NCBI GenBank assembly: GCA_017515595.1
Contig: JAFWFL010000025.1
Coordinates: forward strand, 1 to 62,545
Origin: Coriobacteriales bacterium
GTDB lineage: Bacteria > Actinomycetota > Coriobacteriia > Coriobacteriales > UMGS124
Length of the DNA stretch: 62,545 nt
Reading direction: 5' to 3'
Shown: one piece after another, positions 52,264-54,703 of the stretch
Numbering within the stretch: position 1 is the stretch's first letter
Layout: the number at the start of each line of letters is the position of its first letter
Translations under genes and position numbers: made by a program
The notes under the pieces: model-generated
What the model was told of the DNA's origin: nothing
Seen by the model: the letters and a program-made list of their open reading frames with translations, nothing else
Databases searched by the model: none

Positions 52264-53108
52264 TGGACGCCGGGCCCGGTCAACCCCCTGTTGCATCTGA
52301 ATCTGTACAAAGCGACCTCGAACGCTTGCAAACAGAGATTTCTCAATACCCGAGTCTTCTGGTGGCTTTCTCCGGCGGAGTCGATTCTTCGCTCTTGCTT
52401 AAGGTCGCCCATGATGTACTGGGCGATCACGTTGTTGCCGCAACCGTAGAGGGCGTCACTCTCCCCTCGGGCGAGGCTGACCTTGCCCGGCTATTCTGCG
52501 AAGACTACAATATTCGCCATATAGAGCTCAGCATTGATGAACTCTCTTTTGAGGGCTTTGCTCAGAACCCGCCAAACCGGTGCTACCTTTGCAAGCGTGA
52601 GATATTTAGCGCGCTCAAAGAAGCTGCTTGTAAGCTTGGTATACAAACGGTAGCAGAAGGCTCGAATCTTGATGACATGGGCGATTACCGTCCCGGGATG
52701 AAAGCTGTCACCGAACTTGGCATTGTAAGCCCGCTCCGCAACGCCGGCCTTACCAAAAAACGTATTCGCGCATGCGCAAAGGCTCTTGGCCTCAAAGTAT
52801 GGAATAAACCATCTCTTGCTTGCTTAGCCTCTCGCTTTGCTTACGGAGAAACCCTTACCAAGCAAAAATTCGAACAAGTCGATGCTGCCGAGAAATGCTT
52901 ACGGGGACTTGGTCTCAGCCAAGTCCGAGTACGGGTTACCGGCTCAGATGCGCGTATAGAAGCTTTGCCTTCTGAGTTTGATCTTCTCATTCACAACGAT
53001 ATGCCTCATATCATAGGCCAAACACTTAAAGAGCTTGGGTTTACTCATGTATCGCTTGATTTGTTAGGGTATCGCACTGGGAGCATGAACGAGGGTCTCA
53101 CGCGGTAA
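52263..53108 (+). CDS. larE: LarE-type ATP-dependent sulfur transferase
   Basis: 281 residues. The PP-loop is FSGGVDSS (residues 36-43). LarE adds sulfur to the pyridinium dicarboxylate mononucleotide that becomes the nickel-pincer cofactor of lactate racemase. Three cysteines stand at conserved places: CYLC (107-110) and ACLAS (C187). This pattern resembles the [4Fe-4S] class rather than the sacrificial single-cysteine class. larB and larC are not in this window. Its ATG overlaps the fmdB stop. The last codon and stop lie inside the large inverted repeat. Confidence 0.85.
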   Translation: MDAGPGQPPVASESVQSDLERLQTEISQYPSLLVAFSGGVDSSLLLKVAHDVLGDHVVAATVEGVTLPSGEADLARLFCEDYNIRHIELSIDELSFEGFAQNPPNRCYLCKREIFSALKEAACKLGIQTVAEGSNLDDMGDYRPGMKAVTELGIVSPLRNAGLTKKRIRACAKALGLKVWNKPSLACLASRFAYGETLTKQKFEQVDAAEKCLRGLGLSQVRVRVTGSDARIEALPSEFDLLIHNDMPHIIGQTLKELGFTHVSLDLLGYRTGSMNEGLTR

Positions 53109-53325
53109 TTATGTTTTTAAGAATTGAAGAAAGACTTCTGAAAGAGGATACCTATCTTCTCCTCGCTAGCCTGCCGCGGGTTGCGTGTACGACGCGGTTC
53201 CCATACTACTAGTGAGTCTTTTCTACTCGTGCCGTGTCTATGCAACCGCGCGTACAGAGACGCTCGGATAAGATAGGTATCCTCTTTCAGAAGTCTTTCT
53301 TCAATTCTTAAAAACATAATTACCG
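53103..53325. repeat. 223-bp element with perfect 56-bp inverted arms
   Basis: The arms at 53103-53158 and 53270-53325 are exact reverse complements, about 30% GC. The 111-base core is about 59% GC and holds its own pairings: GTACG(A)CGCGGTT (53187-53199) or CGCGG(G)TTGC (53175-53184) can pair with 53242-53255. The left arm contains the larE stop; the right arm ends 8 bases before the rsmB stop. No transposase is present. It could be a MITE, an invertible segment, a long-hairpin RNA or an unusual bidirectional terminator. Confidence 0.9.
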
Positions 53326-53332
53326 GGACGTT

Positions 53333-54703
53333 TTACTGAGGCTGCTTTGTAAGAACAGCGCAGAAATGGCCGTCACAGGATGTTTTTGAGGGATAAGTGC
53401 GCATGTAGCCTTCAGGTGTTGAAACTGATTGGAGCTCTTGTCTAAGGGGTTCTGAAGAAGCTCGTTCGGATATGGGATCAATTACAAAACCTTTTCCCTC
53501 TTCAGAATTCAAAAACGCATCAATAACATCTTCATTTTCTTGACGGAGGATCGAGCAGGTAGAGTAAATAAGGCTTCCGCTGCTGTTCAAATGCTTGGCA
53601 ACACTTTTTAACATCTTTACTTGTAAAGCTGCACATGAGTCAACATCGTTTGGGGTAAGAGACCAAACTATTTCAGGGTGACGGCGCAGCGTACCGGTGC
53701 CTGTACAGGGAGCGTCAACAAGTATGCGATCGAATGCATCAGGGAGTTCTTGCCAAACTTCTTCTTGGCAGATATCACCGGTATACCATGAGACACCGGT
53801 CATGCCGTTTAATTCAAAGCGCTCTGAGGCAATGTTTGCTTTGTGATCGTGGATATCAACGGCGCAAATATGCGCTTCTGACGCAAATCTATTGGCATGA
53901 GACATCATGAGAAGGCTTTTTGTGCCTCTGCCGCTGCCTACTTCTAGCATTTGCTCGCTGTGTTTTGGCGCTGCTATATATGCTACTGTCTGAGCTGCAT
54001 AGTCGCTTACAACTGCGTAATTGTCTTTGAAAAGTTTGCAGGTACTAATACGCTCAGGATTTTGTATAAGAAATGCTCCGGGTATTTCACCGCAGGGGAC
54101 AGTATGTAAACCTTCAGCTTCAAACTGAGCTTGTGCTGAGACGGCAGGAATGCATGGTTCCAAGGCTGCTACATAAATGGGAGGTTCATTGAGAAGCGAT
54201 TCGCTTAAAGCTTTTGCTCGTTCTTCTGTGCAATCTTCGATAATCCTCTTAAAAATCCAACTGGGAAGGCCGTATTTTGCTTCCGGGTTTGATTCAAAAA
54301 AGGTTTCACGGTTTTGGGCTATTTTGCGCAGTACGGCATTTGCCAGACCGGCAGCGCTTTTTGTATGCAATCTCACAAGTTCAACGCCTTGACTTACGGC
54401 AACATGTGCAGGCTTCTCGAGATACAGCAGTTCATAGGCAGAAATGCGCAGGGCTTCTCGTACTGATGTATCTAGTTTTGATGGTTTGGCAACATAGTTG
54501 TCAATTATCTCATCAAGGGTTCCTTTGGCGGCTTCGCAACCGAGAGCTAGTTTGCGTGCGAAAGCAGCGTCTGACTCTTGTAAGCCTTGAAGCTGTTGCG
54601 TGCCAAAAGGAGAATTTAATACCTCACGCACATAGGCATTGCGCTCGTGGGCATGGCATAAAACATTGTATGCACTTTTACGGGCGCTCGAAAGTTGGGC
54701 CAT
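53333..54703 (-). CDS. rsmB: 16S rRNA (cytosine967-C5)-methyltransferase
   Basis: 456 residues. An N-terminal NusB-like domain (ARKSAYNVLCHAHERNAYV) is followed by the SAM methyltransferase with GRGTKSLLMM, the VDAPCTGTGTLRRHPE motif and the catalytic cysteine in SLIYSTCS. It modifies C967 of 16S rRNA. The ATG directly follows the fmt stop (TAAATG). The order def-fmt-rsmB is the Bacillus order. Confidence 0.95.
   Translation of the reverse strand: MAQLSSARKSAYNVLCHAHERNAYVREVLNSPFGTQQLQGLQESDAAFARKLALGCEAAKGTLDEIIDNYVAKPSKLDTSVREALRISAYELLYLEKPAHVAVSQGVELVRLHTKSAAGLANAVLRKIAQNRETFFESNPEAKYGLPSWIFKRIIEDCTEERAKALSESLLNEPPIYVAALEPCIPAVSAQAQFEAEGLHTVPCGEIPGAFLIQNPERISTCKLFKDNYAVVSDYAAQTVAYIAAPKHSEQMLEVGSGRGTKSLLMMSHANRFASEAHICAVDIHDHKANIASERFELNGMTGVSWYTGDICQEEVWQELPDAFDRILVDAPCTGTGTLRRHPEIVWSLTPNDVDSCAALQVKMLKSVAKHLNSSGSLIYSTCSILRQENEDVIDAFLNSEEGKGFVIDPISERASSEPLRQELQSVSTPEGYMRTYPSKTSCDGHFCAVLTKQPQ

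What the first reader, a model, noticed from the sequence alone, without database searches (positions are those of the whole stretch)
53103..53325. 223-bp element with exact 56-bp inverted arms between larE and rsmB
The two arms match over 56 of 56 bases while the core does not, and the core is far richer in GC (about 59% against 30%). The element lies exactly between convergent genes and contains the larE stop codon. A transcript from either side would form a 56-bp duplex with a branched head, a likely RNase III substrate. It may be a MITE, an invertible cassette or a stable RNA. None of the known families I can name fits it well: terminators are shorter, retron RNAs need a nearby reverse transcriptase, and integron sites lack long perfect arms.
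Basis: partly seen in the sequence, partly recalled or inferred. Interest (0 to 1): 0.8.

Follow-up and report, generated by a model that had tools for sequence, protein, structure and literature searches.

The report
Self-matching DNA hairpins repeated across genome
The 223-bp hairpin is real and is one of roughly a hundred or more giant hairpins scattered between the genes of this Coriobacteria-like bacterium, each built on a conserved centre with long arms that differ from copy to copy yet match perfectly within a copy, which suggests the cell keeps copying one arm onto the other.

Summary
It is not unique. The core recurs twice more in the same genome (L002, L003), each time with different but perfectly complementary arms and each time followed 2-4 nt later by GTTTTACnGAGG. 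The core was found in no other genome, phage or plasmid searched. A survey of 862 kb found about 34 long-armed hairpins in several families; one family's core has 46 copies here and none in 396 related genomes. Perfect arm runs of 30 bp or more: 21 in 862 kb here, 0 in 400 kb of relatives. Between copies, arm differences are mirrored on both sides (47 two-sided, 0 one-sided; second family 122 and 2), while the core helix of the same elements changes one-sidedly about as often (7 and 6). G.T wobbles are nearly absent. I read this as dispersed palindromic elements with a conserved core whose arms are re-copied from each other at DNA level (template switching or hairpin repair). Dispersal mechanism and function are not shown. 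No known RNA family or intrinsic terminator matched; retron and invertible-cassette readings have no support.

The parts
53103..53158 (+). left arm, variable between copies; first 6 nt are the last codon and stop of larE
   Evidence: 56/56 complementary to the right arm; the LarE C-terminus aligns to its end with L. plantarum LarE
53159..53269 (+). conserved GC-rich core (most conserved 53160-53268, TCCTCGCTAGCCTGCCG...CGTACAGAGACGCTCGGA), imperfect hairpin with conserved internal loops
   Evidence: three copies in genome, 91% and 75-78% identical; 5 base pairs changed on both sides between copies
53270..53325 (+). right arm, perfect reverse complement of the left arm
53330..53341 (+). GTTTTACTGAGG, right-hand tail motif shared as GTTTTACnGAGG by all three copies, 2-4 nt after the arm; supplies the rsmB stop codon here
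   Evidence: sequence comparison of window, L002 (reverse) and L003
52263..53108 (+). larE (flanking gene, co-oriented with the core)
   Evidence: TIGR00268 310.7 bits
53333..54703 (-). rsmB (flanking convergent gene)
   Evidence: NF011494 best model, below its own cut-off; orthologues in relatives

Best explanation
This is one copy of a small dispersed palindromic DNA element. A conserved ~110-nt core forms the head of a hairpin. The long arms carry no fixed sequence but are kept exact reverse complements because, when a strand folds on itself during replication or repair, one arm is re-copied from the other (hairpin-primed template switching, or mismatch repair of the extruded hairpin). Each arm mutation is therefore either erased or mirrored, so arms drift quickly between copies while staying perfect within a copy; the core keeps its conserved internal loops, presumably because they are selected. 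Shown: repeated core, several families, perfect arms, two-sided changes, absence from relatives. Inferred: the copying mechanism. Not shown: how the element spreads and whether it does anything for the cell; a barrier between neighbouring transcripts is possible.
For: Three copies of the core with different, perfect arms. Arm changes between the three copies: 47 two-sided, 0 one-sided; family A-II: 122 and 2; core helix of the same B elements: 6 and 7 (Fisher p = 4e-6; pair counts). Arms of families A, B and E: 1362 Watson-Crick pairs, 7 G.T, 13 A.C, so no wobble excess on either strand. 18 of 19 untruncated family-A copies found by core alone still have long near-perfect arms. Core-proximal arms are similar between copies (22/33, p < 5e-5; 17/33, p = 7e-4), so arms are inherited and drift. 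Own genome 21 runs of 30 bp or more in 862 kb, relatives 0 in 400 kb; shuffles of the first 400 kb gave none of 15 bp or more. Template switching is proposed to create and maintain perfect hairpins (PMC8794818), and inverted-repeat arms in Nematomorpha mitochondria are discussed in the same terms (PMC6649704).
Against: No second strain or close relative was available, so ongoing correction was not watched directly. Two-sidedness partly follows from the arms being perfect, so it cannot alone separate ongoing correction from arms made at insertion. Compared cells are not independent. The GTTTTACnGAGG tail and the mobility are unexplained by the copying model.
Confidence: 0.6

Rival explanations
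1. The arms are made at insertion: a snap-back step copies the flanking DNA in inverted orientation, so each arm is local sequence.
For: Distal arms are largely unalignable between copies and were not found elsewhere in the genome. The window arm ends in native larE coding sequence and the L003 arm overlaps the upstream ORF by about 12 nt.
Against: Core-proximal arms are similar between copies, family A-II arms align over up to 86 bp, and outer ends of some family A and E copies share GTTTTTGTTT-like sequence. B cores differ by up to 25% while every arm is perfect, and no decayed B copy was found.
Confidence: 0.17
2. RNA-level selection: the element is a functional dsRNA or structured RNA whose pairing is kept by compensatory mutation.
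For: Stable fold; core pairs covary; all three B copies lie at the 3' end of a co-oriented gene (L003 sequence).
Against: Almost no G.U pairs in over 1300 arm pairs and almost no one-sided changes; arm sequence unconstrained; no promoter-like site, no Rfam match.
Confidence: 0.12
3. Ordinary MITE: terminal inverted repeats moved by a transposase, recently spread.
For: Dispersed, intergenic, non-coding; families C and D have fairly constant arms.
Against: For B and A the arms are not a constant end; no target-site duplication seen; three B copies with 9-25% diverged cores all have perfect arms.
Confidence: 0.08
4. Assembly or amplification artefact (inverted chimeras).
For: Draft of 134 contigs; some contigs end in these hairpins.
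Against: Conserved cores repeated up to 46 times; the two halves of one family-E hairpin sit at the ends of two contigs and match each other; copies almost all lie between genes.
Confidence: 0.03

Closest known systems
Quasi-palindrome correction / template-switch maintenance of hairpins (PMC8794818; PMC7202029)
   Same: Perfect arms, multi-base two-sided changes, hairpin priming.
   Different: Those cases are single sites or short RNA stems; here up to 105-bp arms in many dispersed copies built on conserved cores.
Coding palindromes of Nematomorpha mitochondria (PMC6649704)
   Same: Many long perfect inverted repeats in one genome, arms thought to convert each other.
   Different: Mitochondrial, inside genes, no repeated core reported in what I read.
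Bacterial MITEs and ERIC-like palindromic elements (PMC10969869, and own knowledge)
   Same: Small, dispersed, intergenic, palindromic, non-coding.
   Different: There the ends are the constant part; here the centre is constant and the arms vary.
REP sequences moved by TnpA-REP (RAYT) transposases (PMC8266576, abstract only)
   Same: Dispersed intergenic hairpins; six Y1 transposase genes exist in this genome.
   Different: REPs are 20-40 bp (PMC3733652, abstract); none of the six Y1 loci carries an A, B or E core within 1.5 kb.

Membership tests
MITE | constant terminal inverted repeats | tested here: not met
   B arms differ between copies, aligned fraction 0.23
MITE | target-site duplication | tested here: not met
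   none seen by eye in the flanks of B copies
MITE | related autonomous transposon | not tested
   no full-length element with split core appeared in blastn of the genome; no dedicated search
REP/RAYT | short palindrome next to a Y1 transposase | tested here: not met
retron | reverse transcriptase beside msr-msd | tested here: inconclusive
   no RT evident by eye among neighbouring ORFs; genome not searched for RTs
intrinsic terminator | short GC stem followed by T run | tested here: not met
   0 sites
known structured RNA (Rfam 15) | score above gathering threshold | tested here: not met
invertible cassette | both core orientations at a site | not testable with these tools
   one assembly only; the three cores share orientation relative to the upstream gene
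template-switch-maintained hairpin | mirrored multi-base changes without one-sided intermediates | tested here: met
template-switch-maintained hairpin | mutation seen to be copied from one arm to the other | not testable with these tools
   no strain series held

The most novel reading that the evidence does not exclude
The conserved core is a dedicated self-priming head of a mobile single-stranded (DNA or RNA) hairpin: each round of copying starts in the core and re-synthesises the second arm from the first, so the element carries only one informative arm and can take on any sequence as arm. That would be a new replication mode for a bacterial mobile element.
Probability: 0.13. Interest if true: 0.85.

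Novelty: new variant of a known kind. Interest (0 to 1): 0.62.

Why it matters
If right, a bacterial genome holds a natural set of roughly a hundred or more long hairpins in which mirrored and one-sided mutations can be counted, a direct test of whether template switching maintains perfect stems, a question so far argued largely from short RNA stems. It also shows a dispersed element type defined by its centre, not its ends.

Tried and rejected
Core sought in relatives by blastn and covariance model, in genome and viral contigs with strict and relaxed patterns (76 loci scored, all chance), in phages and plasmids: nothing. Weak hits L005-L007 are chance. The tail motif alone marks no further element, though that scan revealed the other hairpins. 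Arms as copies of other genomic loci: rejected. Empty-site comparison at larE-rsmB: impossible, nearest relative only 47% identical in RsmB. Loss of SbcCD as sole cause: SbcD is not found here, but also not in many relatives, including G018 and G027 whose sampled stretches have no run of 30 bp or more. tRNA benchmark for one-sided changes: only 12 tRNAs and no same-anticodon pairs, so not usable. Enrichment between convergent genes: 7 of 29 against 61 of 467, not convincing.

Full report
The element at 53103-53325 is exactly as described: 56/56 complementary arms, 60 nt with one mismatch, 30% GC, around a 59% GC core that folds into an imperfect hairpin. It sits between larE, whose stop codon lies in the left arm, and rsmB, which ends 7 nt beyond the right arm. 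The host looks like a member of the Coriobacteria: an L31-Coriobacteria leader was found elsewhere in the genome, and the window lies in a 3.3-Mb draft of 134 contigs.

The core is not unique. BLAST of the genome gives two more copies, 91% and 75-78% identical. Both are hairpins with long perfect arms, 76/76 in L002 and 40 plus a short stretch after one mismatch in L003, but the arm sequences differ from those of the window. All three copies have GTTTTACnGAGG 2-4 nt after the right arm, and in all three the arm starts within about 12 nt of the stop codon of a co-oriented upstream gene. Core helices show compensatory changes at five pairs and conserved internal loops. A covariance model finds these three and nothing else convincing in 396 other genomes of the order. 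Pattern scans of genome and viral contigs and blastn of phages and plasmids were negative.

Looking at other stretches of the same genome showed that long-armed hairpins are common. In 862 kb I count 34 with a perfect run of at least 20 bp and spacer 18-260; runs of at least 30 bp number 21 here and 0 in 400 kb from seven related genomes, whose GC is mostly higher. Scaled up this is on the order of 130 in the genome, an extrapolation. They fall into families with distinct cores. Family A (CGCTTTCGCCTCATAAAAACGCT) has 46 core copies here and none in 396 other genomes. Family E (GAGGACTGTYTGAGC...GCGAGTTCCGCAGCA) also occurs in three genomes of two other families of the order, again at the head of long, partly imperfect hairpins, and has a copy with 105-bp perfect arms here. 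Almost all lie between genes although 88% of the sequence is coding by a simple gene caller of mine.

How are the arms kept perfect? Family B copies differ at many arm positions; pairwise, 47 differences are two-sided and none one-sided, while the core helix of the same elements has 6 two-sided and 7 one-sided. In subfamily A-II, 41 of 86 pairs changed on both sides and the pairwise count is 122 to 2. G.T pairs are no commoner than A.C pairs. Independent compensatory mutation through wobble intermediates would leave many one-sided states; direct copying leaves none. Since the core-proximal arms are recognisably similar between copies, the arms are probably inherited and drift together, and are not simply fresh copies of each new flank. 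Family-A copies found by core alone nearly all still have near-perfect arms (18 of 19), as expected for continued correction.

I therefore favour DNA-level copying between arms, by hairpin-primed template switching or repair of the extruded hairpin. The literature I could read describes this mechanism for RNA stems and discusses it for mitochondrial palindromes (PMC8794818, PMC6649704). The model also fits the window arm ending in native larE coding sequence: LarE aligns to its last residue with L. plantarum LarE, so the outermost bases of the right arm may be a copy of it. No SbcD match was found in this genome, the nuclease that in E. coli attacks long hairpins (own knowledge), but relatives without such hairpins lack it too.

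What is not settled: how the element spreads, what the GTTTTACnGAGG tail is, and whether any RNA is made. Six Y1 transposase genes exist, none close to an A, B or E core. Limits: no strain comparisons, a draft genome, a home-made gene caller and hairpin scan, few and non-independent copies of family B, and a literature library that lacks most subscription journals.

Noticed in passing
46 places in own genome, e.g. L171:6419-6551, L175:16161-16327, L201:2528-2740: Family A hairpins: conserved apical core CGCTTTCGCCTCATAAAAACGCT with variable near-perfect arms; absent from 396 related genomes.
   Followed up: yes
L168:3637-3884, L171:8423-8686, L190:6655-6904, L230:1362-1683; also L227, L228, L229, L231, L233 in other genera: Family E hairpins with core GAGGACTGTYTGAGC..GCGAGTTCCGCAGCA, arms up to 105 bp; shared with other families of the order.
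   Followed up: partly
L018, L168:4822-4997, L171:4801-4984, L187:14186-14387, L189:15351-15558: Family C hairpins with fairly conserved arms containing sequences like GACAACTCAAATGCGTTTGAGTTGTC, MITE-like.
   Followed up: partly
L014, L016, L021, L159:12240, L159:18113, L160:6796, L161:11885: Family D, about 120-bp elements with TGCAAGTTATGACGGG ends; L021 has a changed but still mirrored end.
   Followed up: no
L032:1310-1485, L033:1530-1773: Clusters of GTTTTCGAGAGG units forming nested hairpins.
   Followed up: no
L161:13776-14140, L165:15595-15946: Nested hairpins built of short repeated units (AAAGTAAAGGATCAGGAC; GGCAAAAAGGTGACGATT).
   Followed up: no
L247: Y1 (RAYT-like) transposase locus with CCTGACAAAAGG palindromes, a likely REP system.
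   Followed up: no
G000 whole genome: No SbcD (TIGR00619) match at E <= 1e-3 in a 97.7% complete genome; several relatives lack it too.
   Followed up: partly
L234 (end of C26) and L236 (start of C112): Two halves of one family-E hairpin at two contig ends, so these contigs are probably adjacent.
   Followed up: partly
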